From: Bacteroidales bacterium
Lineage (GTDB): Bacteria > Bacteroidota > Bacteroidia > Bacteroidales > UBA932
Assembly (NCBI GenBank): GCA_017415715.1
Contig: JAFQFD010000019.1
Location: forward strand, 1-64,000
DNA: 64,000 bases
Direction: 5' to 3'
Shown: piece by piece, positions 15 through 47,256 of the stretch
Numbering within the stretch: position 1 is the stretch's first letter
How the letters are laid out: every line of letters begins with the position of its first letter
The notes under the pieces: generated by a model
The model's database searches: none
Told to the model about the DNA's origin: nothing
The model's input: only the letters and a program-made list of their open reading frames with translations
Program-made: the position numbers and the translations under genes

Positions 15-380
15 TGCTCCGGACGGGAATCGAACCCGTACGGACATTTCTGTCCACGGGATTTTCTTGCTACTCTTGCTTTTACACAAGCCGGCTTCAT
101 CCGTAATGCTAAGCCGTTGTAGTCTGGACTATTTCTTGACCGTGCGCTGGGCGTGTTTACATGCCGTCCTGCGTTTAGGCCCTCCCTGTATAGTCTCTAC
201 GCCATTTATCAGCCTGTGCTGAATTTAGTGAGCCGTCGCCAAAGCCTGCATTTCTGCGGGCGAGGTTTCCGTTTGTTAGGGGAGTTCTACTCTCAAGGTT
301 TCCCTTGAGGCACTCTTTTCGAGCATCCAAAAGGATACTCATTTAAAGTCCCGCGTGTCTACCTATTCCACCACCAGAGC
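15..380 (-). tRNA. tRNA-Leu(UAA), interrupted by a group I intron
   Basis: Exons are 346-380 (5' half) and 15-65 (3' half) on the minus strand. When joined they fold as a class II tRNA. The 7-bp acceptor stem pairs GCTCTGG with CCGGAGC. The D-arm carries GGTAGAC. The 5-bp anticodon stem CGGGA/TCCCG closes the loop CTTAAAA, giving anticodon UAA. There is a long variable arm (GGACA-GAAA-TGTCC) and a T-arm ACGGG-TTCGATT-CCCGT. The long variable arm and UAA anticodon identify leucine. The discriminator is A and the CCA tail is not encoded. The gene decodes UUA/UUG leucine codons once the intron is removed. Confidence 0.93.
66..345 (-). other. group I self-splicing intron in the tRNA-Leu(UAA) anticodon
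   Basis: This 280-nt insertion lies directly after the U of anticodon UAA and ends in G, the omega-G of group I introns. The exon end ACUU can pair with GAGU just inside the intron, placing a U-G pair at the 5' splice site (P1). A 7-bp hairpin with a GAAA tetraloop follows. The P7 strands GACTAT (plus-strand 190-195) and ATAGTC (127-132) pair, and the second lies in AAGAAATAGTCC, close to the classical S element. No homing endonuclease ORF is present. The position matches the well-known cyanobacterial and plastid tRNA-Leu(UAA) intron. The subclass (IC3-like) is my inference. Confidence 0.9.
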
Positions 381-35673: not shown

Positions 35674-36381
35674 ATGACTTATATTCTCCTTGCGGCCCTC
35701 GCACCGGTCGTAGTGCTGCTTTACTACATCTACAGAAAGGACGAAGTCCAGAAAGAGCCTGTCAAAGAACTGCTTAAGGCCTTCGGACTGGGAAGCCTTT
35801 CTACGTTCCTTTCCTTGTGCATTTCCACTCCTTTGGGGATTCTGGGATTCTTCCCTTCAGAGCCCTCTACGCTGATCGGAGCGGCGGCCGTGTCGTTCTT
35901 CGGTGCTGCGATTCCGGAGGAAATCGCCAAGTTTGTCCTCTTGTGGCTCTTTGTACGTAGGAATAAGTTCTTCGACGAACATATGGACGGTATCGTGTAT
36001 GCTGCAGTCGTTTCTCTGGGCTTTGCCGCCCTGGAGAACGTCATGTATCTGTTTTCTTCGGAGGACTGGGTTTCGACCGGCATCACCAGGGCCCTCTTCT
36101 CCGTTCCGGGCCACATGTTCTTCGGCATCCTCATGGGATATTACTATTCACTCGTGCGCTTCGACCCTGTGACCCCGCGCATCAACCGCTTCTGGGTCCT
36201 CGGCGCACCGGTCCTTGCCCATGGCATCTTCGACACCATCCTCTTCAGCGCGGGCGTGCTCCCGGAGGCCCTCTCGCTGGTGATCATGATAGCCTTCCTC
36301 TTCTTCTGCAACAGCCTCCGCAAAGAGGCCAGCAAGCGCATCCGCATGCATCTGGTGAGGGATGGGGTGGTTGTCGAATAA
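35674..36381 (+). CDS. prsW: PrsW-family intramembrane metalloprotease
   Basis: 235 residues with about seven membrane segments. The PrsW/CPBP-like motifs are IPEEIAKF (EExxK), ENVMYLF and two membrane histidines in SVPGHMFFGILMGYYY and LAHGIFDTI. PrsW cleaves anti-sigma factors in Bacillus. It begins 3 nt after the aminopeptidase. The nearest anti-sigma-like proteins in this window are the ones near 46 and 60 kb; any link is inference. Confidence 0.85.
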   Translation: MTYILLAALAPVVVLLYYIYRKDEVQKEPVKELLKAFGLGSLSTFLSLCISTPLGILGFFPSEPSTLIGAAAVSFFGAAIPEEIAKFVLLWLFVRRNKFFDEHMDGIVYAAVVSLGFAALENVMYLFSSEDWVSTGITRALFSVPGHMFFGILMGYYYSLVRFDPVTPRINRFWVLGAPVLAHGIFDTILFSAGVLPEALSLVIMIAFLFFCNSLRKEASKRIRMHLVRDGVVVE

Positions 36382-37236: not shown

Positions 37237-37503
37237 TTAACGGTGATAAAGATTATAGTCTTCTAGCATGATGTTATATTTGGAAGCTAAATCGGCGACC
37301 ATCGTCTTATATACATTCATGCATTCTAGATTTTCGTCATTCTTTATTAGATAGAGACACTGATCTATAATGTTTTTGATCATCTCATAAACTTGCTCGG
37401 GATGATTATCTTTGTCTACGGCTTTTACAATATGTGGGGCTATTTTGTAGTACTCTGATATAAGAGATCTTCCATCTTCCCTTGATGACATCCAATTATC
37501 CAA
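37237..37503 (-). CDS. small helical protein resembling the tail of CFI-box proteins
   Basis: 88 residues. The part SEYYKIAPHIVKAVDKDNHP then EMIKNIIDQCLYLIKNDEN resembles the helical C-terminal module of CFI-box-CTERM proteins (YYKIAPxIVxxI ... CLxLIxxGKNxE), but the Cys-Phe-Ile box itself is missing. It is the last gene of the island operon, 36 nt after the metalloprotease-like gene. Function unknown. Confidence 0.6.
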   Translation of the reverse strand: MDNWMSSREDGRSLISEYYKIAPHIVKAVDKDNHPEQVYEMIKNIIDQCLYLIKNDENLECMNVYKTMVADLASKYNIMLEDYNLYHR

Positions 37504-37539
37504 TAAGGACGTGACTAATTTGAGGTCACGTCCTTAATA

Positions 37540-38565
37540 TTAGAACTGCTTAATGAGCAGATATTTCTTGATGTTGTAAAACATGTTCCTGGCCTGGTCG
37601 GAAAATCCAAGACTGTCCTGACTCATTTTGCTCCATTGGTCCAGTGAAAGACTTGCAACATCTTCGGTTCTGTAGTCTACGATAAGTTTCAGGAAATCAG
37701 GGTCCTTGAGTGCGGTTTCCAGACCGTTGGAGTCAATGTAATGAGCAAAGTAGTAACCTCCACCTTCAATATCCCATCGCTCTTCCGATACAGGATAATC
37801 GCCCTCCCCGATAGGATCATATTGCCACAGGAACCATTGCCTAGCTGCATCTATATCAACTCCCATTTTATAGTTCAGGTATCCTGAAATAAAATCAGCA
37901 ACCTTTTCTCCTGCAGTAACTGACAAGTTACCGCAATACTTTGAAGCCAGCGCATGGCCAATCTCATGAGCTAGATCAGAAAGGATGATGTCAGTGTTGC
38001 CGATATGTTCTATACAAGCGTCGGCGTAATGTGGATTGAAACAGATGTAGTCATCTGCAAGCGTGAATCTAAACGGACCGCTTAAAGAAGCATGTGCAGC
38101 ATTCGGAACGCTTTCGGTCACAATTACAGGTAGGTGTCTGATGTTTAGAATGTCACACATCTGGTTGCAGGCTTGCTGAAGATCCTCTTGAGTAAAGTCA
38201 ACAGGAATATGTGGTTTCGGTATCAGGTCATCTGGTGAATCCAAGGTTCTGTTCAGGCGCATTGCATATATTCCGAATGGGTCTTTAATTCCGTTGCTGA
38301 TTTCAAAATTAGGTTTTTCATCATATGGAAGCATGTCTTCTTTTGCCCCAAACGAAGGATGGAATGTATGGCAAGAGGCTTCACACTCATCAAGTGCATC
38401 TAGATGAGTGTCTACATTTGTATCCTCGTCATGCAGCGAATTTTCTTCGCATGTGTAGTTCTCACTCTCGTCGGACTCTGATGATTCATCAAGCTGGCTG
38501 CCAATAGGATAGCTGTCATCAATACTTAAGTCTAGAGATTCAAAGTTGTCAAAATTATTTTCCAT
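37540..38565 (-). CDS. HExxH metalloprotease-like protein with acidic N terminus
   Basis: 341 residues. Residues 1-65 are acidic and probably unstructured. Residues 200-204 are HEIGH in DLAHEIGHALASKYCG, followed by GEKVADFISGYL (219-230), whose Glu and Asp could complete a zinc site as in ImmA/IrrE or M48-type peptidases. No signal peptide or membrane segment. It lies between the tail-collar GTPase and the small helical gene in the minus-strand operon. A protease that releases or activates an operon partner would fit; this is inference. Confidence 0.65.
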   Translation of the reverse strand: MENNFDNFESLDLSIDDSYPIGSQLDESSESDESENYTCEENSLHDEDTNVDTHLDALDECEASCHTFHPSFGAKEDMLPYDEKPNFEISNGIKDPFGIYAMRLNRTLDSPDDLIPKPHIPVDFTQEDLQQACNQMCDILNIRHLPVIVTESVPNAAHASLSGPFRFTLADDYICFNPHYADACIEHIGNTDIILSDLAHEIGHALASKYCGNLSVTAGEKVADFISGYLNYKMGVDIDAARQWFLWQYDPIGEGDYPVSEERWDIEGGGYYFAHYIDSNGLETALKDPDFLKLIVDYRTEDVASLSLDQWSKMSQDSLGFSDQARNMFYNIKKYLLIKQF

Positions 38566-38679
38566 AGAGATTTGCTTTTGGATATAAAGAGTACAATCAT
38601 ATTCTTAATCTATTGCCTAGTGTTTAAAATTATGCAAATTAATTGCATATAGATAATACATACTCGGCATCCAATAAGG

Positions 38680-40056
38680 CTACTTCACTCTTATGCAGTA
38701 TAGCAGTGCACAGTTTTTGGGACGTGTTTCCTCCGCGTATCTAGTCTCTATCGGCAAGCTAATAGGATTTGCATTAATGGATAAATTATGCGAGTGCGCA
38801 CCAGTTGATGATGTTCCTCCGGTATCATTTCCACTTGAATAACGGAGTTCATGAAGCACGCTGACCCCAGACAGCATACCTTCATCAACAGACCTTTTAT
38901 CAGCTCTAGTGGAATGACTGTGTTCACCGTTGACACTAATAGAAATTTTGCTTGCGTCCAAGTTATGCTTATGAGATTGTATGGCATCATCCTGATATGA
39001 TCCAAACTCCCTTTTGCTCTTGTCAAATATCTGGTCCTTGTCCCAGCCTCGTATGAAACGTCCCCTTAAATCAGGGATACAGAAGAGGTCGTATCCCCTG
39101 TCGGTGAATGTGTAACCGATAGCTTCAAAAAGTTCTTTGTATTCATCCTTAAGTAGCTTTCTTCCATCGCACACTATCCAACCCGATGGAATCTTATTGA
39201 ATGCAAATGCCTGAATTGTGCCGACAGGACAGATTTCATCCTTTAATGTCTGTATTTCTTTCTTAAGTTCCAGATATGCTCTGTTGTCCATATCAAATAT
39301 TCTTTGGATTAAATGGAAATTGCTTGCTTCCTTTATTTGAGAAGCTGGGTATGATAGTAACTCGTAGGTATTTACTGCATTTCGAATTTCTTTCCTTATA
39401 AGGATTTCATCGTCCATGCCTCCGACACAATACCAGTACCACATAAGATTCACAATCGGGATACATCCTTCTTCAAATGGATAGCGTATAGGTTTGTAGA
39501 ATTCCAGCACATGGCGGTCTTCGCTCATTATTCCTTCGTTGATATCTGAAAACGGACTCCATTTGTCAGCTATTACCATATCCTTGCAATTTAATATGAA
39601 GTAGTATGGTATGTTGTAGCTTTCAAGTCTGCGAATATCTTTATATTGAGAACTTTCGGTTCCGAATGATTTCTCATTTGAAACGACTACGATAGCATAG
39701 TCTAAGTCAGTAAGCGCATTCAATGCGGCCATGTTGTCCTTTTCGTCATATCCAAACCCAGGCATGTCAGTCAGTGTGTAATCTCTAAGAAAGTCGTTGT
39801 TGAGAAATACATTGACTGTTTTGATTGTTTTATCTGTATCAATGCCCTTAAGTCTGCTTATGCCGCATGTCTCCTTTTCTCCATTGTCATATACGATTTC
39901 TGCGAATTCCGATTCTGAAAAAGCATAGTTGACAACAGTATGGGTAGTTGCTAGTCCTACCCCTACTGTTGCAACATGTCGTTTAAGAAGGCAATTAATC
40001 AGAAGTGATTTGCCTGACTGATATTGCCCTACTATTCCGAATCTAAGCTTTGTCAT
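38680..40056 (-). CDS. dynamin-like GTPase fused to a phage tail-collar domain
   Basis: 458 residues. Residues 1-240 are a dynamin-type GTPase: P-loop GQYQSGKS (10-17), GVGLATT with switch Thr (32-38), DMPG (97-100) and NCKD (156-159). Residues about 250-275 are a short coil. Residues 276-340 match the phage tail-collar domain: CPVGTIQAFAFNKIPSGWI, then CDGR, IGYTF, and IPDLRGRFIRGWD. The C terminus carries His-x-His motifs (SHKHNL, GEHSHS, GAHSHN) typical of metal-binding fibre tips. Tail-collar domains are usually in phage fibres; fusion to a GTPase is unusual. It overlaps the larger GTPase gene by 14 nt. Confidence 0.85.
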   Translation of the reverse strand: MTKLRFGIVGQYQSGKSLLINCLLKRHVATVGVGLATTHTVVNYAFSESEFAEIVYDNGEKETCGISRLKGIDTDKTIKTVNVFLNNDFLRDYTLTDMPGFGYDEKDNMAALNALTDLDYAIVVVSNEKSFGTESSQYKDIRRLESYNIPYYFILNCKDMVIADKWSPFSDINEGIMSEDRHVLEFYKPIRYPFEEGCIPIVNLMWYWYCVGGMDDEILIRKEIRNAVNTYELLSYPASQIKEASNFHLIQRIFDMDNRAYLELKKEIQTLKDEICPVGTIQAFAFNKIPSGWIVCDGRKLLKDEYKELFEAIGYTFTDRGYDLFCIPDLRGRFIRGWDKDQIFDKSKREFGSYQDDAIQSHKHNLDASKISISVNGEHSHSTRADKRSVDEGMLSGVSVLHELRYSSGNDTGGTSSTGAHSHNLSINANPISLPIETRYAEETRPKNCALLYCIRVK

Positions 40057-42763
40057 GCCTTACATGCTTTTCCTTGAAGTTTGTATAAATCTTACGCTGC
40101 GCATTGATATTGGCAATTATATGCGTAGCTGTGAAACAAGCCTCCTCTACTGCCTCATTTGATCTTGATGTGGCAATATCTCTTTCATTATCCAGCTTTT
40201 CAAAGTCTACACGGACAGTTTCTTCAAATGAGTCCAGACGTCTATTGAGTTCATTTGAAATCACTTTCTTGAACTTTGAGGCAATGTCTTGCTTGTTAAG
40301 TTCTTCGCGAATCTTTTTGCTTATTCTGTTTGTGAATTCCTTTTTGATGGCATCTGGGCCTTTAATTCCAATAAAAAGACTTCCTCCTAACAGAGCAATC
40401 GTAGCCAAAAATATAGTAGCTGGATTAGAAACAACAATTGCTCCTCCCGCAATTGCGCTACCAAACACGAGGCAAATATACGATGCAATTGCCATTGCAA
40501 TACTTGCTGCAACAACAGCTACCTCAGCTAGAAGTTCAGGCATGATATCTTTTGCCTTTATGGAAACGTTTGCACCCTGCTTATCATTACATTTTATTCC
40601 GAAATTGGAAGTCTCTCTTGAGATGCAGAGAAAATCACTCATTCTATTTGTGAATGATTTGTCATCAGCATAGGTTTTATGCCATTCCTGAAGAAGTCTG
40701 TTCTCTAAAAGATCCATTTCTGGCTCAAAGATATCCTTAAAAGAACTGTCTCTGCCGCTGGACATCATTGAATTCCAATAATTCAAACGACTTTCTATGA
40801 TAAATGTAATGTCAGCTTCAATAAGCGGGGATATAAATTTCTTCAGTTCCTCTTCTTTGCGAAGAAGTTTGAATATATCATATTTGTTCTCGTAGATAGT
40901 ACCAGCAATACTCCTAGAAAGTTCATCATAAATGCTTTCAGTGAAGAGTTTGGCATAGATATCATCACTAAGACGATCAGATAAGGAATCTCTATTGTTT
41001 CGCTTCGTAAAGATATGTCCATGTACTATCGTGCCGGCTTTCGTATCGAACTTATTGGCTTTTTCAATTCGCGTACTCCATATTTCCGCCACCTTTTCAG
41101 CTCCAAGGCAATATGACTCTACGAATTTAGAATGCAGGCCATTTCTTACCTGTGTCAGTCTCTCGTTCATCTTGTTTATACCTTCTGTGAAGATGACAGC
41201 GTATGCCTCGTTTTCTTCAATGAATGAGCGGAGATTTTCAATTAGTTGATTTATTCCGCTTGCCTGGATGAGTGCATCAGAAGTCTTCTCGGGAATGTCA
41301 TTATAACCTTTGGTGTGATACTCCCATGCTTCCTCAAATGTTGCAAACCTGATGACCTGCTTAGTTCCCAGGATTGGGTTCGTGCGTTCAATTGGCCTGC
41401 AGAAATATGTGATATCCTCGCTCATTAATTGACCGTTACCTTGCGAATGCTTAAACATACCAAGGTATGCAAGGTGGGCATCATAACATGTAACGTCCTT
41501 GTCTTTGCCGAACAGTCTTTTAATTTCTTTAATATTGTCATTGATGAATTGATTATCCAGCTTGCTTGATACGTTGTTTACTATGAACAGCTTGCGATGA
41601 ACATCTCGGAAATCACTCTGGATCTTATACAAGGATTCGCAGACATTTTCTCCGATACCCCTGTGATATGGCAGCAGGTATAAAATAGCGTGAACCTTGG
41701 ACATGACTTGAGTGGTTACCTCAGTGTCATACTTATTATTGAACAGTCCAGGACAATCAATAAGGGTGCAGCCGAGACGCTTGAGTGTTGGCGAATCTAT
41801 ATAGCAGTCAATATGACTGATGAAAACAAATGCGGCTTCATGGATGTCGAATGCGTCAACACCATCTTTACTCCATCTGTTATCCAGTTCCGTTGGGAAG
41901 TAGGTGTACTTTGGGGCATCTGATATAGAATAAATCTCGTTTATTGCCTTTTCAAGTTCAGGTGTACCGTAGTATTTGAGGATGAACGAGCATACAGCGA
42001 GGGGCCTAACATCCTTAGGGCATTCCTCCGATAGCCTGAATTTCTCCAGTTCCTTCAGCCAATGCGCTCGTGATTTCTGGTCCTTCAGGTCGAATCCCTC
42101 CTTGAAGCCACCCAGATGTTCAGTAAGGCGTGATAGAATCCTTTTCAGATCCTCATCAGTTTTTTTGCCCACGACGATGTCTTCCTTTTCACAGTATGAA
42201 ACGGAAACAGGAACAGCGGATGTCGCAGATCCTACTCCGATTTTGCCGATATGACGACCGTCGCAAAGAGCGTCTAATGTTGTGGTTTTTCCTGTCTGGT
42301 ACTCTCCCATGAGAAGCACTGTATACCTGTTTTTTGTGCAGTGTTCCTCAATTATATGCAGAGTTTCCCTATGGCTGTTCCATTCAGGAATAATAGACAT
42401 GAAATCAGAAAAGTCGTTGTTCCAAAGGGGACAGCTCAATTCATCATGAATAATTTCTGAGAGTTCCTTGCATGACTCAGAGTAGTCTTCAACGAAAAGG
42501 TCATCATTATTCGGGAATTCCTGGTTGTCATTGACAATGTCTTCAATGGTAGAGTCAATGAATGACTTGGTCCTTTCTAGAATCTCTCTTCTTTTTTCGG
42601 ATACTGTGGCGTCAGCGTCACATGCCTCAGTCAATTGTGAGTCTTCCAATGCGCTGTCACGAATACTTGCCGCCATTTTGAGACTCTCGGATATCGAGAA
42701 AAGTTCCTTGTTGGATTCTAGCATCAATAGCTTATCCTCTAGTTCTCTTAATGTCTTTGTCAT
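40043..42763 (-). CDS. large dynamin-like GTPase with membrane hairpin
   Basis: 906 residues. A helical N-terminal region (1-140) precedes the GTPase: P-loop GEYQTGKT (153-160), GVGSATSAVPV (176-186) and DCPG (336-339); the fourth motif is poorly conserved (VNNVSSK). A long helical stalk follows. Residues about 743-800 form two hydrophobic segments, a likely membrane hairpin, as in bacterial dynamin-like proteins such as BDLP. The last 106 residues are a charged coiled coil returning to the stalk. Such proteins tubulate or fuse membranes. It overlaps its smaller partner by 14 nt. Confidence 0.85.
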   Translation of the reverse strand: MTKTLRELEDKLLMLESNKELFSISESLKMAASIRDSALEDSQLTEACDADATVSEKRREILERTKSFIDSTIEDIVNDNQEFPNNDDLFVEDYSESCKELSEIIHDELSCPLWNNDFSDFMSIIPEWNSHRETLHIIEEHCTKNRYTVLLMGEYQTGKTTTLDALCDGRHIGKIGVGSATSAVPVSVSYCEKEDIVVGKKTDEDLKRILSRLTEHLGGFKEGFDLKDQKSRAHWLKELEKFRLSEECPKDVRPLAVCSFILKYYGTPELEKAINEIYSISDAPKYTYFPTELDNRWSKDGVDAFDIHEAAFVFISHIDCYIDSPTLKRLGCTLIDCPGLFNNKYDTEVTTQVMSKVHAILYLLPYHRGIGENVCESLYKIQSDFRDVHRKLFIVNNVSSKLDNQFINDNIKEIKRLFGKDKDVTCYDAHLAYLGMFKHSQGNGQLMSEDITYFCRPIERTNPILGTKQVIRFATFEEAWEYHTKGYNDIPEKTSDALIQASGINQLIENLRSFIEENEAYAVIFTEGINKMNERLTQVRNGLHSKFVESYCLGAEKVAEIWSTRIEKANKFDTKAGTIVHGHIFTKRNNRDSLSDRLSDDIYAKLFTESIYDELSRSIAGTIYENKYDIFKLLRKEEELKKFISPLIEADITFIIESRLNYWNSMMSSGRDSSFKDIFEPEMDLLENRLLQEWHKTYADDKSFTNRMSDFLCISRETSNFGIKCNDKQGANVSIKAKDIMPELLAEVAVVAASIAMAIASYICLVFGSAIAGGAIVVSNPATIFLATIALLGGSLFIGIKGPDAIKKEFTNRISKKIREELNKQDIASKFKKVISNELNRRLDSFEETVRVDFEKLDNERDIATSRSNEAVEEACFTATHIIANINAQRKIYTNFKEKHVRHDKA

Positions 42764-42785
42764 AGTTTATGTAGTTAGAATGTTT

Positions 42786-44063
42786 CTATTTCTGAAGTAT
42801 TCTCTTTCGGATGACATCGGTAAAGTCAGCGACGATGTCGTTTCTTCTGCACTTCTGAGCAATTCGTATGAGCTCTGAAACGATATTGATATCGTCAATG
42901 GTAAGGTATCTTGTATCAATTTCTGCTGCCGAAGATACTGAAATGTCAGTCCTTGACTTGACTATCGAAAGCAGTGTTTCTGATAGAAGGATGCTTGATA
43001 TATATTCATCGTCTGTCAAGGTCGTTAAGGACCTAAGGAAGTCGACACTTCTTTCTGGGAAATTGCACAAAGTTATTTCTGCATGTTCTTTTACAGTCAG
43101 TTCTCTTTCCATTTTGCAGGAAGTCAGACCGAGTGCTTGGGATCTGAATGCCTCTGTATATGCTTGTTTATAAATGTCTTTTGTAACTGCGTCACATTTA
43201 ATAGTGTCTTGTGATATCAGGTAAGGAAGCAGCGGTGACTGATGTGATGTCGTCCAATAGTATAGATCCGTTTGGAATCCCATTGAACACAAGATATGAG
43301 TCAGAGCATCGGAAGCAAGTTTATGTTTTTCTTTCTTTGACAGGTTTACTATTGGATGGCGGAATGCGATGCCTGTATCATACGAGTATGAACCCTCTTG
43401 TGAACCATTCCAGAGATTGATCTTTATCTCAAGCCTGCTGAAATCTTCGTTTCTTACAATGAAAGGTGTTATGGTTATCGTAGGAGTACGCAGTATCGCC
43501 TTCAAATTCTTGATGTCGTCCTCACTGAACAATACTCCATTCTTCCACATGTCAGTATAGTAGCAAATGGTATGAAGACTTCTCTGATTCCAGTATTCTG
43601 AAATCATTGCAGACAGTTCCTGGTCAAGCAGAGGTAGGATATTCCTGTTGAAGGGTGTGTCGTTACTGTTAGTAAGTATACAGAAGACCCCTTCTCTAGT
43701 GTGTTCCGGCCGGTTGTAGGACATCGGAATGACAGAGTTTCGTATTACGTAAGGGCTTATGTTTAAAGGATATGAGGTTGTTAAAGCATATTGATGAGTA
43801 TATTTCTCAAATGAATCGATGAAACTCTGGTTTATTTCGTTAAGGCGTTCTATGTGAGCTTCTTGCTCCATCTGGAGCTGTAGTCTGCATGATAGTTTGA
43901 ATCGTTCTTGTGAGCGCTCAATCTCTTCCTCTAAGCTTTTCTTTTTGCTCTTCCTCTGCAGTTCCTTTATAGTCTCTGTATGCTTCTTGTTGCTGAAATA
44001 ATTCCAAGTTGCAGCACCTGCCTGTACGATAAGTGTCACGATTATACCTGCTGTTAAACTCAT
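42786..44063 (-). CDS. membrane-anchored coiled-coil protein A of the dynamin operon
   Basis: 425 residues. An N-terminal membrane segment (about 4-22) precedes a basic coiled coil (KELQRKSKKKSLEEEIERSQ). The central region has short beta-rich stretches (TITITPFIVRNEDFSRLEIKINLW), and the C terminus is helical. The same layout is seen in the next gene upstream (44069-45172), where VVIMPKAN ... LSVNVSLW occupies the same place, so the two look like diverged paralogues. No known family. 22 nt before the large GTPase gene. Confidence 0.7.
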   Translation of the reverse strand: MSLTAGIIVTLIVQAGAATWNYFSNKKHTETIKELQRKSKKKSLEEEIERSQERFKLSCRLQLQMEQEAHIERLNEINQSFIDSFEKYTHQYALTTSYPLNISPYVIRNSVIPMSYNRPEHTREGVFCILTNSNDTPFNRNILPLLDQELSAMISEYWNQRSLHTICYYTDMWKNGVLFSEDDIKNLKAILRTPTITITPFIVRNEDFSRLEIKINLWNGSQEGSYSYDTGIAFRHPIVNLSKKEKHKLASDALTHILCSMGFQTDLYYWTTSHQSPLLPYLISQDTIKCDAVTKDIYKQAYTEAFRSQALGLTSCKMERELTVKEHAEITLCNFPERSVDFLRSLTTLTDDEYISSILLSETLLSIVKSRTDISVSSAAEIDTRYLTIDDINIVSELIRIAQKCRRNDIVADFTDVIRKRILQK

Positions 44064-44068
44064 GTGCT

Positions 44069-45172
44069 TTATTTTATTTCGTTTAATACCTCTTTGATTG
44101 CCCCTTGTATGAATTCCGCCTCTTTTCTTCCCATGATTTCTGTCATGATATCAACTCTCGTGGACTGCTCGTTATTTATGTCTGATATAAGGGCAGAGTA
44201 TTCTTTGATCGCGAAAGCTCTCAGTTGGGGAAAATCGGCAAACAGAGAATCCTTTTCCGAATATCTGCAGAAGTGAGGTTTGACCTGCCTCTCAATAAGC
44301 ATGTGTATGTCATTGAAGACTCCACAGATAGTCGTGTAATGACTAATCAGCTCGTTTTTCTTTTTCAGAAAATATTCCTTGCTATCAATAGCCTTGTTCT
44401 CGTCATATTCTATTGTGAATAATGATCTGTGATACGGGAATATAGAATCCTGTGTCCATAAACTTACATTGACTGATAATGTCTTGTCTAGGTGATTCGC
44501 TTTAGGCATTATTACGACACACGGCAAAGCGCTCATCATGGCGTAAATATACGCGATCGCAGGTCCACCAGTGATGGAGTTTTTTTCACAGAATCTGTAA
44601 ACATTTGTTGCTTCGACTCCTATACTCTTGATTTCATTTATGACTCGGTCAACAATATCGCAATACTGGCTTTCATAGGAAAGGATGCTGTTATTGTTGG
44701 GGCTATATATTGTATGTTTTCCAATGATTATATTCAAGGGACAGTTGTCAATGGACTGCGTTTTCCTTAAGTCGTTGATAGCCTTTATGCTGGTCTTTAA
44801 CGGCCAGTCCTTAAAGAATAGTTGCAATTCCATCTTGTCAAGGTCGTTCTGAATTCTTTCTATGGCCTCCTCTTTATGGAACTCTCTCTGCATCTGCTTC
44901 AGTAAGGTTCTGAAAGCCCTTTCATCGGCATCTTTCTCGTCCTTGTACTTTTCTTTTGCTTCCTGAAGACGCTGCTGAAAGGCTTCGTCCTCCTGTAACT
45001 GTGCAAAGGCATTCTGTCTGGTTTTTGCACCTGAGACAAGTGAGATAACGGCGCTGGCTATGAAGAACCAGCTACAACCGGACTTTTGAGAATTCTTCAA
45101 AAAACCTTCTAATTTTGAAGATGCCAGTGTAGCGTCTAGCCGTGCTAGAGGTCCTAAGTTTTCGTATCCCAT
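44069..45172 (-). CDS. membrane-anchored coiled-coil protein B of the dynamin operon
   Basis: 367 residues. A hydrophobic segment (about 33-48, WFFIASAVISLVSG) is followed by a charged coiled coil (QRLQEAKEKYKDEKDADERA) and then a domain with GGPAIAYIYAMMSALPCVVI and LSVNVSLWTQDS. It resembles protein A in order of parts. Separated from A by 5 nt. May tether or recruit the two GTPases; that is inference from the shared operon. Confidence 0.7.
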   Translation of the reverse strand: MGYENLGPLARLDATLASSKLEGFLKNSQKSGCSWFFIASAVISLVSGAKTRQNAFAQLQEDEAFQQRLQEAKEKYKDEKDADERAFRTLLKQMQREFHKEEAIERIQNDLDKMELQLFFKDWPLKTSIKAINDLRKTQSIDNCPLNIIIGKHTIYSPNNNSILSYESQYCDIVDRVINEIKSIGVEATNVYRFCEKNSITGGPAIAYIYAMMSALPCVVIMPKANHLDKTLSVNVSLWTQDSIFPYHRSLFTIEYDENKAIDSKEYFLKKKNELISHYTTICGVFNDIHMLIERQVKPHFCRYSEKDSLFADFPQLRAFAIKEYSALISDINNEQSTRVDIMTEIMGRKEAEFIQGAIKEVLNEIK

Positions 45173-45190
45173 ATTGTATCCTTGTTCGTG

Positions 45191-46603
45191 TTATAATATA
45201 TCATCTGTGAATGCTGCAAGATCGCTTCCAAGACCGAAGTCTGAGCCGTGCTCTGCATCACTTCCAAAATCAGTGTCTGTTAATTCTCCTGACTCCGAGC
45301 TTGAATCATTTCCTGCATCTATGTCTGTCTGCTCAAAAATATCTTTTACCTCATCGATGGCTGCAACTTCCCCTATGCAGGTCCCGTACTCTGAATTTGG
45401 ATTATGTTCACCATCCAGCATTATCCATGGCTTGGATTCATGGAGTCTCATTGGTGTGACCAGATATTCGTCAATAGGTGTCGGCGTATAAGTGTCTTCA
45501 TCGTAAGGCGGCACGAAGTCGCTGAATTCTGTATAGTATGTATCAGCTAAAGCAAACCTGTTAGTAAGTCCGTCAGGAAGAATAAGTGTTGATGGAGTGT
45601 ATTCGGTAGCAAAGCCAGAAGGTTCCATCATATGGGTTTCATAGTTGTACTGGTATGGAGCAGGGATATTTGTTGAGACCATTAGACAGTTACCGTCTTT
45701 CCATGCATCATAGAATTGCTCGTACGTGTATTCGACACAAACTTCTCCTGTGCCAGAGTCAATAATGTTTACTGTTATGTCCTGAGGGTTGTCCGGATTT
45801 ACATTGACTCCGGCAACAACAATAGCATGATTTGCTCCTTCTATACCGTTGAGGTTCTGAATTCCGTCATTTATCCTGTTTACAACCTGCCCATGTAACC
45901 TTTTGAAAAGGTTCGGTTCTTTGGCAATCCAGAGTTCATCGCAGTCAACGCTTACAATCACTCGGTGACCGGCTCTAAGTTCTGCAATGATGTCATATAT
46001 TGTTGCATTCTCTGTTCGTGTAGTGCCTATATGGCAAGTGTCAAGAAGGTTGCCCAAACTTTGTTTCGGGGCACCTCCATTAATTGGATCCGGGTCGAAC
46101 CACCCCTGCTGTGTTGCGAAATCAATCAGATTCTCCTTTGGTATCATGATGCCGTAGTCACGCAATACTATTTCCTGAGCACGCGCGCTGCATGAATTGT
46201 CATAACCCTGCCAGACGTAAGGATCGAAATTCTCCAATTCATAATTGGTGTCATAGCCGAAGGTCTTTCCGAATGTCCCGTTATCAAACGCTTCTCCAAG
46301 TGTTTCCTTGGTGCAGATGTCTTCCATCTCAGGAGCATTGGCTAGAAGAGATACGATATCAAGTTTGTCGAAATACTGATCTATCATGATTGATTCGGCC
46401 TCGTCAATCTTGATTTCAGGAGCGTTGCAATCATGGGCAATGTCATCACAGATATCATTGAAGGAGTCCTCAAGCTGTTTGTTTTCAGATAATAGACTCT
46501 CGACCATGATCTCTTCGTCATGTGTCAAATTGCCTTCGATATATGCTCCAAGCATCTCTTCTGCACTTCCGAAGCTGTTGAGAAAATTGTACTTTGTATC
46601 CAT
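45191..46603 (-). CDS. anti-sigma-like N terminus fused to a C39-like cysteine protease
   Basis: 470 residues. Residues 12-52 (LGAYIEGNLTHDEEIMVESLL) resemble the helical N terminus of Bacteroidota anti-sigma factors, without zinc ligands. Residues about 125-320 are papain-like: Q132 and C138 in QGYDNSCSARAQ, His259 in GANHAIVVAGVN, Asp282 in NIIDSGTG, the C39 order. The tail (about 400-470) is acidic and Ser/Asp/Gly-rich. The gene starts on the sigma stop codon (TAATG). It may bind the sigma factor and release it by proteolysis, or process partners; both are inference. Confidence 0.7.
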   Translation of the reverse strand: MDTKYNFLNSFGSAEEMLGAYIEGNLTHDEEIMVESLLSENKQLEDSFNDICDDIAHDCNAPEIKIDEAESIMIDQYFDKLDIVSLLANAPEMEDICTKETLGEAFDNGTFGKTFGYDTNYELENFDPYVWQGYDNSCSARAQEIVLRDYGIMIPKENLIDFATQQGWFDPDPINGGAPKQSLGNLLDTCHIGTTRTENATIYDIIAELRAGHRVIVSVDCDELWIAKEPNLFKRLHGQVVNRINDGIQNLNGIEGANHAIVVAGVNVNPDNPQDITVNIIDSGTGEVCVEYTYEQFYDAWKDGNCLMVSTNIPAPYQYNYETHMMEPSGFATEYTPSTLILPDGLTNRFALADTYYTEFSDFVPPYDEDTYTPTPIDEYLVTPMRLHESKPWIMLDGEHNPNSEYGTCIGEVAAIDEVKDIFEQTDIDAGNDSSSESGELTDTDFGSDAEHGSDFGLGSDLAAFTDDIL

Positions 46604-47214
46604 TACAGTAGGCCCTCCTTCTTTAAGATGCCAATTACCTTTGACTTGGCTATCAGATGCTTGTTATAAAAGTTATCTCTACTCATGTTGAGCAATAGAG
46701 CTGTCTCTTCGTTTGTTTTTTCTTCTAAATAACGATGTATTATGATTTGCCTGAATCTTTCAGGCTTGACCTGATCGATGATCTTCTTTACATCTTCCTT
46801 GTTGACTGAAGAAAGGTCAATCTCTTCAGTCCCCTCGAACTGTCTCATTGAGTCCTCACGGGTAAGATCACTTGTTACCGTAAACCGCGGCTTCCGTTTG
46901 TATTTCCTTTTGCAATGGTTTATTGCAACTCTCTTGAGCCAGAATGTCAGGGTGCATTTATGACTGAAATTAGCCAAAGGAATCTTGCCCGATTTCTTGC
47001 CGGGAATCATTATCAGGGTGTAGATTTCATTTATGAATTCAATGCAGTTCTCACAGTCTGTGTAATAATCGTTGTAGATTGACTTGAAAAGAGGATAGCA
47101 TTTCTTGTAGAGATAGTTGTAAGTAATACCCTTATCGCGATCCAGAAGGGCTTGAACTACCTCCTGGTCGGACATGCTGTAGATGTCTGGTTGTGTATCA
47201 TATGTGGTTGCCAT
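46603..47214 (-). CDS. ECF-like sigma factor, first gene of the dynamin operon
   Basis: 203 residues. Region 2 is around residues 25-110 (FINEIYTLIM ... LTFWLKRVAINHCKRKYK, the core-binding and -10 reading helix), and region 4 is the C-terminal HTH (NEETALLLNMSRDNFYNKHL). Region 2 is more divergent than usual. It lies at the head of the minus-strand operon and its stop overlaps the protease gene start. It may control this operon. A sigma-like protein with a similar region (GKxPLAxF ... TxWxW) is encoded at 60446. Confidence 0.75.
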   Translation of the reverse strand: MATTYDTQPDIYSMSDQEVVQALLDRDKGITYNYLYKKCYPLFKSIYNDYYTDCENCIEFINEIYTLIMIPGKKSGKIPLANFSHKCTLTFWLKRVAINHCKRKYKRKPRFTVTSDLTREDSMRQFEGTEEIDLSSVNKEDVKKIIDQVKPERFRQIIIHRYLEEKTNEETALLLNMSRDNFYNKHLIAKSKVIGILKKEGLL

Positions 47215-47248
47215 GGGTGAAAGATTGTAGTAGAAGTTAGGTATGAGA

Positions 47249-47256
47249 CAAAGTTA
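47249..47256 (-). promoter_or_regulatory. -7 element upstream of the dynamin operon
   Basis: TAACTTTG on the minus strand matches TAnnTTTG, 34 nt before the sigma gene start. The -33 spacing region is T-rich but has no clear TTTG at 19-21 nt. Confidence 0.45.

What the first reader, a model, noticed from the sequence alone, without database searches (positions are those of the whole stretch)
37237..47256. Eight-gene island: sigma factor, protease, two dynamin-like GTPases, tail-collar domain
Seen: one co-directional run with short gaps and start/stop overlaps (TAATG at 46603, 14-nt overlap at 40043). It encodes sigma factor, anti-sigma-like/C39 protease, two related membrane coiled-coil proteins, a 906-residue dynamin-like GTPase, a dynamin-like GTPase fused to a tail-collar domain, an HExxH protein and a small helical protein. 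It is visibly AT-richer than its flanks. Known: paired bacterial dynamins remodel membranes and some protect against phage or toxins. Inference: a regulated membrane-acting system, possibly defensive or involved in vesicles, that I do not know as described.
Basis: partly seen in the sequence, partly recalled or inferred. Interest (0 to 1): 0.9.

Follow-up and report, generated by a model that had tools for sequence, protein, structure and literature searches.

The report
Sigma/peptidase-controlled dynamin and tail-collar operon
An unnamed Bacteroidales-type bacterium carries six adjacent genes, found in the same order in two distant relatives, that join a gene switch with a built-in peptidase to a membrane-remodelling enzyme and to a second such enzyme fused to a phage tail piece; it looks like an undescribed version of systems thought to protect bacteria from invaders, but its function is untested.

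Summary
The genes are real, co-oriented and AT-rich (GC about 0.40 against about 0.53). Six of the eight form a conserved unit: ECF sigma factor, anti-sigma/C39 peptidase, two coiled-coil proteins, a 906-residue dynamin-like GTPase, and a GTPase fused to a phage tail-collar. Two MAGs (L105, L106) hold the same six in the same order at 33-49% identity. The HExxH gene and the 88-aa ORF are absent there. The C39 gene marks a wider class of 59 loci: sigma lies in the operon in 35; of the 51 with at least 2.5 kb downstream, 35 carry dynamin-like GTPases, 28 an Hsp70-like gene, 9 the coiled-coil family, and 8 none of these. Some siblings carry DO-GTPases and GrpE, parts of the predicted GTPase-centric conflict systems of Kaur et al. 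2020. The collar is separable: fused here, alone in one sibling, missing behind a homologous G domain in another. I read this as a new variant of such systems: an intracellular trigger frees sigma through the C39 domain and membrane-acting GTPases respond, with the collar as sensor or decoy for phage tail-fibre proteins. No function was tested. The exact subtype is rare.

The parts
47249..47256 (-). TAACTTTG, matching the Bacteroidetes -7 promoter element TAnnTTTG (motif recalled), 34 nt before the sigma start codon
   Evidence: Read from sequence. The two-part pattern TTTG-17..21-TAnnTTTG does not match here, so only the -7 half is present.
46603..47214 (-). ECF-type sigma factor, 203 aa
   Evidence: NCBIfam TIGR02937 sigma70-ECF 48.6 bits against cut-off 42.9; Pfam region-4 models sub-threshold; sigma homologues upstream of C39 in L105, L106 and others
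45191..46603 (-). Anti-sigma-like N-terminus (about residues 14-50) fused to a C39-type cysteine peptidase (about 130-310) and an acidic tail; C138, H259, D282
   Evidence: C138, H259 and D282 invariant in 30 of 30 rows of A5 (29 of 59 loci plus window); in wider sets C and H stay invariant but the Asp column does not (F in L049). zf-HC2 passes its cut-off in L062; over 13 members C39_2 is seen in 9 and zf-HC2 in 4 at E up to 0.1. The window protein alone has no C39 hit and no TM-like segment.
44069..45172 (-). cc1, 367 aa coiled-coil protein
   Evidence: Orthologues L105 E 1e-68, L106 E 2e-79; distant profile match to the sibling family A8 (probability 79)
42786..44063 (-). cc2, 425 aa coiled-coil protein with hydrophobic N-terminus
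   Evidence: Orthologues L105 E 1e-86, L106 E 2e-101; profile match to A8 (probability 96.5)
40043..42763 (-). Dynamin-like GTPase, 906 aa: G1 GEYQTGKT, G3 DCPG, hydrophobic hairpin about 748-800
   Evidence: Dynamin_N 34.3 bits against 27; PADLOC LeoBC 6e-12, 3.9e-18 over residues 95-846 of the L106 orthologue; hairpin also in L105 and L106; orthologues 33-34% identical
38680..40056 (-). GTPase domain (about 1-250; G1 GQYQSGKS, G3 DMPG) fused to phage tail-collar and needle-like region (about 264-458) with three HxH pairs
   Evidence: MMR_HSR1, Dynamin_N and Collar (3.5e-17) above cut-off; PHROG tail collar fibre 1.4e-37; PDB profile hits to short tail fibres (9cuy 2e-13; 1ocy 7e-6), T4 gp37 tip 2xgf (3e-8 for the whole chain, no single stretch passing alone) and GTP-binding protein 5owv (4e-10); H362/364, 379/381, 421/423 invariant in 4 of 4
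37540..38565 (-). HExxH protein, 341 aa, acidic N-terminus; possible cargo, not part of the conserved core
   Evidence: No Pfam family; absent from L105 and L106; matches in 4 of 197 other order genomes, best 31% and E 1e-7, the two best in unrelated neighbourhoods; 114-nt gap to the gene before it
37505..37535 (-). Inverted repeat (10-11 bp arms) just after the HExxH stop codon, possible end of the transcript
   Evidence: Stretch folds at -20.8 kcal/mol, z -5.97, 0 of 200 shuffles as good; the consensus scan did not list it as a T-tailed terminator
37237..37503 (-). 88-aa ORF, TTG start, likely a fragment or not a gene of this unit
   Evidence: Sub-threshold CFI-box-CTERM hit; no counterpart in L105 or L106

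Best explanation
A horizontally acquired, self-regulated GTPase system of the conflict type. Shown: a six-gene unit (sigma, anti-sigma/C39 peptidase, two coiled-coil proteins, dynamin-like GTPase, GTPase-collar) is kept together in three divergent genomes; its sigma/C39 control module is shared with many sibling operons that carry dynamin-like GTPases, Hsp70, DO-GTPases or AAA ATPases. Inferred: the anti-sigma N-terminus holds the sigma factor; an intracellular trigger activates the fused C39 peptidase, which cleaves the anti-sigma part or a partner and frees sigma; sigma raises transcription of the operon. The 906-residue dynamin, with its hydrophobic hairpin, and the GTPase-collar act as a bacterial dynamin pair on the inner membrane, scaffolded by the coiled-coil proteins, and seal or remodel membrane during phage attack. 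The collar and needle module, which should trimerise, binds phage tail-fibre proteins as sensor or decoy.
For: Gene order conserved in L105 and L106 with E from 1e-68 to 2e-153. C39 with dynamin-like GTPase in 35 of 51 loci that have at least 2.5 kb downstream, with Hsp70 in 28, coiled-coil family in 9, at least one of these in 43. Dynamin-like genes 63 of 196 within 6.5 kb downstream of C39 on its strand against 12 of 324 elsewhere in the same loci. C39 Cys and His invariant in the sets aligned. zf-HC2 anti-sigma domain above cut-off in the Desulfosarcina homologue. DO-GTPase2 in 9 of 66 and GrpE in 2 of 66 accessory proteins of sibling operons, parts named in the GTPase-centric conflict systems (PMC7159879, passages and section 27 seen). 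Collar stands alone beside Hsp70 in L070; in L062 a homologous G domain carries no collar but sub-threshold TPR-like repeats. Foreign composition; dynamin absent from 60 related and 392 other order genomes. Precedents: paired bacterial dynamins tether membranes (PMC6104087, passages), DynA delays phage lysis (PMC8844932, passages), a CRISPR-linked peptidase cleaves a sigma inhibitor (PMC10028731, abstract and introduction).
Against: PADLOC gives the dynamin distant Leo hits (6e-12) and otherwise only weak ones (cc2: AbiEi 5e-4; GTPase-collar: LeoBC 8e-4). The one scan of viral contigs found no C39 relative and the plasmid search no dynamin. 8 of 51 C39 loci have none of the GTPase, Hsp70 or coiled-coil genes, so the C39 module is not tied to GTPases alone. 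The catalytic Asp is not kept in L049. The G4 motif looks degenerate in both GTPases (NNVS, NCKD; by eye), so GTP specificity is unsure. No DO-GTPase, GAP1 or Hsp70 gene in the window operon. The GTPase-collar has no TM-like segment (signal peptides not tested separately), so contact with a phage tail protein would have to occur inside the cell.
Confidence: 0.45

Rival explanations
1. Envelope-stress or vesicle operon: sigma responds to membrane damage of any cause and the dynamins repair or vesiculate membrane; phages are not the target and the collar only trimerises and clusters the GTPase.
For: Dynamin relatives LeoABC are tied to vesicle release (PMC4159319, abstract); a sigma/anti-sigma pair in Phocaeicola answers an antibacterial toxin, probably as envelope stress (PMC9308784, passages); Hsp70 and GrpE in siblings fit stress.
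Against: Patchy occurrence and foreign composition and exchangeable C-terminal modules fit a conflict system better than a housekeeping response. The window's C39/anti-sigma protein has no TM-like segment, unlike usual envelope-sensing anti-sigmas.
Confidence: 0.28
2. Cell-suicide version: once sigma is released, the dynamin and coiled-coil proteins damage the inner membrane and stop phage spread by killing the host cell.
For: Tight double control (sigma plus anti-sigma/peptidase) is typical of dangerous effectors (inference); the conflict-system paper proposes apoptosis-like outcomes (PMC7159879, abstract and passages).
Against: No known toxin, pore-former or nuclease domain among the six proteins in the libraries searched; the dynamin precedent seen is protective.
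Confidence: 0.15
3. The collar protein is an injection or surface device: a tail-tip-like spike moved by the dynamins, not a sensor.
For: Collar plus gp37-like needle region with three invariant HxH pairs.
Against: No other tail, baseplate or sheath hit among the eight window proteins; no TM-like segment in the protein (signal peptides not tested separately).
Confidence: 0.06
4. No joint function: an AT-rich acquired cluster of unrelated genes with a chance fusion to a prophage tail fragment.
For: Rare: no match to the dynamin in 60 relatives, 392 order genomes and 394 class genomes (samples overlap in part).
Against: Same six genes in the same order in L105 and L106 despite 33-49% identity.
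Confidence: 0.04

Closest known systems
GTPase-centric (DO-GTPase/GAP1) predicted conflict systems (Kaur et al. 2020, PMC7159879; abstract, passages and section 27 seen)
   Same: Regulatory GTPases, often in pairs, plus exchangeable modules, membrane proximity, Hsp70/GrpE in one theme; sibling C39 operons carry Pfam DO-GTPase2 and GrpE.
   Different: The window has dynamin-type G domains and no DO-GTPase or GAP1 hit; control is by ECF sigma and anti-sigma/C39, and the words sigma factor, anti-sigma, C39 and dynamin do not occur in that paper's main text.
Paired bacterial dynamin-like proteins (Cj-DLP1/2, DynA, IniA, LeoABC)
   Same: Two dynamin-type GTPases side by side, one large with hydrophobic hairpin; profile hits to LeoBC/LeoA and, for the second, to 5owv (Cj-DLP, identity recalled) and IniA 6j72.
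   Different: Partner GTPase ends in a phage tail-collar; dedicated sigma/peptidase control; two coiled-coil proteins.
[quoted passage not shown]
   Same: A peptidase tied to a sigma-factor inhibitor in a defence setting (works like).
   Different: C39 instead of CHAT, fused to the inhibitor, no CRISPR; not a member of that system.
Phage short tail fibre gp12 and long-fibre tip gp37
   Same: Collar domain and HxH needle-like region.
   Different: Fused behind a GTPase in a bacterial operon, or standing alone beside Hsp70 (L070).

Membership tests
GTPase-centric (DO-GTPase) conflict systems | DO-GTPase gene | tested here: not met
   Window proteins hit Dynamin_N/MMR_HSR1, no DO-GTPase model at E up to 1. 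In sibling C39 operons DO-GTPase2 matches 9 of 66 accessory proteins.
GTPase-centric (DO-GTPase) conflict systems | GAP1 protein | tested here: inconclusive
   No GAP1 hit in the window; for siblings only 25 of 59 matched families were shown.
GTPase-centric (DO-GTPase) conflict systems | Hsp70/GrpE theme | tested here: not met
   The window operon has neither. Siblings do: Hsp70 in 28 of 51 loci, GrpE in 2 of 66 accessory proteins.
Dynamin superfamily (906-aa protein) | G domain with G1 and G3 motifs | tested here: met
   Dynamin_N above cut-off; motifs
Dynamin superfamily (906-aa protein) | Helical stalk and membrane-binding segment | tested here: inconclusive
   Hydrophobic hairpin in 3 of 3 orthologues; LeoBC profile match over residues 95-846 of the L106 orthologue; no PDB profile hit at E up to 1, fold not predicted
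Leo dynamins (PADLOC LeoA/LeoBC) | Full-length membership and leoABC gene order | tested here: not met
   Distant, mostly partial hits; the gene order (leoC, leoB upstream of leoA; abstract) is not found here
Phage tail-collar domain | PF07484 | tested here: met
   62.6 bits against 24
ECF sigma factors | TIGR02937 profile | tested here: met
   48.6 against 42.9 bits
Zinc-binding anti-sigma domain | zf-HC2 with zinc ligands | tested here: not met
   Window sub-threshold (12.6 against 22.2 bits) and without HxxxCxxC by eye; the homologue L062 passes (26.2 bits)
C39 peptidases | Cys/His/Asp triad | tested here: met
   Met in the window and in 30 of 30 rows of A5 (29 of 59 loci plus window); the Asp is missing in L049
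C39 peptidases | Pfam C39 model above cut-off | tested here: inconclusive
   9 of 13 members at E up to 0.1, best 1.4e-6; L062 below the cut-off (19.1 against 24); window protein: no C39 hit
Known anti-phage defence systems | Protection from phage | not testable with these tools
   Needs an infection experiment

The most novel reading that the evidence does not exclude
A bacterial dynamin pair has taken up a phage tail-fibre tip as bait: the GTPase-collar co-assembles with newly made phage tail fibres during infection. That both poisons tail assembly and signals, through GTP turnover and the C39 peptidase, the release of a dedicated sigma factor, which floods the cell with a membrane-sealing dynamin that holds the lysing membrane shut.
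Probability: 0.15. Interest if true: 0.93.

Novelty: new variant of a known kind. Interest (0 to 1): 0.72.

Why it matters
It points to a recurrent control module (ECF sigma plus anti-sigma fused to an apparently active C39 peptidase) for a family of GTPase/Hsp70 operons, mostly in Bacteroidales records with some labelled as other phyla. Relatives of the C39 gene with GTPases lie in records not labelled as MAGs (Bacteroides nordii, Prevotella sp. P2-180, Marseilla massiliensis, Desulfosarcina cetonica), so a predicted class of conflict systems could be tested in strains that can be grown. It also offers the first GTPase-tail-collar fusion I know of (no paper held both terms), a direct handle on whether bacteria use phage tail parts as bait.

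Tried and rejected
Single-protein searches with the dynamin found nothing: 60 relatives, 392 order genomes, plasmids, one genome-contig scan. The GTPase domain alone matched 73 of 295 order genomes at E up to 0.1, own included; frames of about 410 aa are probably HydF (from memory). Of the places brought in by that search I looked at L003 and at L052-L055, none of this system, and at two (G055, G254) that also carry C39 and led to the class. cc1 against cc2 directly: no relation. Plain phage origin of the island: rejected, no other tail hit among the eight proteins and no viral C39 relative. I considered filing it under the Leo dynamins or the DO-GTPase systems and did not (see membership). 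HExxH as a core part: rejected. An RNA element before several sibling sigma genes was followed and also occurs elsewhere. The consensus promoter/terminator scan found no more sites than shuffles. Literature: searches returned no paper; some returned listings in which I saw no paper on this combination; the closest was PMC7159879.

Limits: open frames were called by a greedy longest-first script, not a gene finder. The families used in counts were built from the same loci, by single linkage. The loci are not independent. L044, L046, L047 and L048 are the same places as L056, L085, L066 and L083 and were not counted twice. In one search the script missed the sigma gene of L062 because its C39 protein is very long; I add it (34+1=35). 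Pfam was run on 2 of the 65 members of the main GTPase family (L085; L067), plus L062 and L097 of other families. Of 127 accessory genes listed I chose 66 for, 99 by hand, favouring larger genes near the GTPases; the 61 dropped include all of L101 and L114, cc1/cc2 of L105 and L106, and most genes cut by locus ends. The 29 loci in A5 and the 13 rows of A9 were also chosen by hand.


Full report
What is there. On the minus strand between 47214 and 38680 six genes follow one another with gaps of 5-22 nt or overlaps: an ECF sigma factor, an anti-sigma/C39 protein, two coiled-coil proteins (cc1, cc2), a 906-residue dynamin-like GTPase and a GTPase-collar fusion. A seventh, an HExxH protein, follows after 114 nt, and then a hairpin (z -6.0). 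The 88-aa frame beyond starts with TTG and is doubtful. GC is 0.385-0.43 inside; flanking windows run from 0.46 to 0.56, most at 0.50-0.55. In one same-genus genome (G007, locus L134) the neighbours on the two sides of the island, an aminopeptidase-like gene (73%) and a RelA/SpoT gene (58%), lie one gene apart with no island, although the RelA/SpoT gene is turned round. The other three same-genus genomes fetched do not keep this neighbourhood. This fits an insertion but does not prove its borders.

Conservation. The dynamin finds no match in 60 relatives (36 of them of the same genus), in 392 other order genomes or, as a profile, in 394 other class genomes at E up to 1e-6 (the samples overlap in part). 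The C39 protein is better kept: 12 of 295 order genomes match at E up to 0.01, own genome included. A profile of five C39 domains found 59 loci in named genomes and none in the one scan of viral contigs. Two of the 59, L105 (MAG titled uncultured Bacteroidales, RUG14590) and L106 (uncultured Bacteroidetes, RUG12038), hold all six core genes in the same order: cc1 1e-68/2e-79, cc2 1e-86/2e-101, dynamin 2e-153/8e-147, GTPase-collar 1e-125/2e-132, with sigma and C39 before them. L105 even has the same 14-nt dynamin/GTPase overlap; L106 has a 3-nt gap. Neither has the HExxH gene or the small ORF. Identity to the window is 33-34% for the dynamin, 48-49% for the GTPase-collar, 35-40% for the coiled-coil proteins and 45-48% for C39; for sigma it was not computed. 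A resolvase gene lies about 1.1 kb upstream of the L105 operon. In the own genome the C39 profile finds one copy; a second, weak match covers the anti-sigma part only.

The wider class. Of 59 C39 loci, sigma lies in the same-strand run in 35 (34 by script, plus L062). Of the 51 with at least 2.5 kb downstream, 35 have a dynamin-like GTPase, 31 have two or more, 28 an Hsp70-like gene, 9 a coiled-coil gene, 8 a gene of the DO-GTPase family and 5 an AAA ATPase; 8 have no GTPase, Hsp70 or coiled-coil gene: L088, L092, L099, L100, L111-L114. Within 6.5 kb downstream on the C39 strand 63 of 196 genes of at least 150 aa are dynamin-like, against 12 of 324 other genes in the same loci (the loci are not independent and the model was trained on them). 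Typical orders are C39-GTPase-Hsp70-GTPase, C39-GTPase-GTPase-Hsp70-DO-GTPase-BACON protein, and sigma-antisigma-C39-coiled coil-AAA ATPase. Most records are MAGs with Bacteroidales-type titles. Records not labelled MAG include Bacteroides nordii WAL 11050 (L067), Prevotella sp. P2-180 (L079), Marseilla massiliensis An824 (L104) and Desulfosarcina cetonica JCM 12296 (L062); 10 of the 59 are MAGs titled outside the Bacteroidetes (such as Clostridia, Lentisphaeria, Akkermansia, Thermoguttaceae, Chlorobiaceae), with the usual binning caveat. Of 66 accessory proteins scanned, 9 match DO-GTPase2, 2 GrpE, 13 a zinc ribbon and 2 PP2C. DO-GTPases and GrpE are parts of the GTPase-centric conflict systems (PMC7159879, passages and section 27).

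The control module. C138, H259 and D282 are invariant in 30 of 30 rows of A5 (29 of 59 loci plus window), so the C39 domain is probably an active peptidase; in L049 the Asp is lost. Pfam's C39 models match weakly, the window protein alone has no C39 hit, and PDB hits are not significant (best E 0.54, a putative C39-like peptidase). The N-terminus is an anti-sigma type domain: in L062 zf-HC2 passes its cut-off, and that protein also carries a protein kinase domain between zf-HC2 and C39. In L065 and L076 the anti-sigma part and C39 are separate genes, which supports two functions. No TM-like segment was found in the window protein, so the module should sense something inside the cell. Which bond is cut is unknown.

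The GTPases and the collar. Both have G1 and G3 motifs and, by eye, a degenerate G4. The dynamin has a hydrophobic hairpin in 3 of 3 orthologues. The GTPase-collar's G domain has PDB profile hits to 5owv (a bacterial GTP-binding protein; Campylobacter DLP from memory), mitofusin-1 and IniA; its C-terminal half to short tail fibres and, more loosely, the T4 gp37 tip. Three HxH pairs are invariant in 4 of 4; in T4 fibres such pairs bind metal in the trimer (recalled). The collar is a module: alone beside Hsp70 in L070, fused in the window, L105 and L106, and missing behind a homologous G domain in L062, where TPR-like repeats score below their cut-offs; the collar model finds no other case in the 59 loci. 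Exchangeable modules behind constant regulators are a mark of conflict systems (PMC7159879, abstract and passages).

How it most likely works, by step. Sigma held by the N-terminus: inferred from domain and gene order. C39 activation and release of sigma: inferred, with a CRISPR-linked precedent (PMC10028731, abstract and introduction). Membrane action of the dynamin pair: inferred from family, with precedents in PMC6104087 and PMC8844932 (passages). Collar as sensor or decoy for phage tail fibres: inferred, the least certain step. I give 0.45 to the whole reading as a conflict-type system, 0.28 to a general envelope or vesicle role, 0.15 to a suicide version.

Novelty. No paper joining C39, sigma and dynamin was found (open-licence library, listings only partly shown). 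The kind (GTPase-centric, predicted conflict systems; paired dynamins) is known; the control module and the tail-collar fusion are, as far as I could see, not described. Hence a new variant of a known kind.

Noticed in passing
L065:10-102, L070:8843-8943, L071:1114-1208, L072:8928-9029, L076:1371-1466, L091:686-785 (the six used for the model); L079:9054-9152, L097:7732-7830, L103:8978-9073, L073:15372-15468; own genome G000:C35:75926-76020: A structured, mostly T-tailed RNA element of about 97 nt. No Rfam match at gathering in the six model loci or the window. In the six it ends within 100 nt of the sigma gene on the same strand; the model finds it in 10 of 59 C39 loci at E below 1e-5 (four new) and once clearly in the window's own genome, away from the island. 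Only 2 of 22 pairs show two-sided changes.
   Followed up: partly
window 35674-36381 (+): PrsW-family intramembrane protease gene (Pfam 3.7e-37) about 0.9 kb from the small ORF; PrsW acts on an anti-sigma factor in Bacillus (recalled). Not found between aminopeptidase and RelA/SpoT in L134.
   Followed up: partly
L049:8169-13458: A gene that looks by eye like sigma (no match to the window sigma) and a C39 protein, followed by proteins that look by eye like TIR and STAND NTPase (not scanned), suggesting that the module also drives other effectors.
   Followed up: no
L062:3060-5546: Desulfosarcina cetonica protein with anti-sigma zinc finger, Ser/Thr kinase and C39 domains in one chain.
   Followed up: no
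L112, L113, L114: C39 homologues beside a shared neighbour (family 26, RibD-like deaminase by eye) instead of GTPases; perhaps a separate branch of the C39 family.
   Followed up: no
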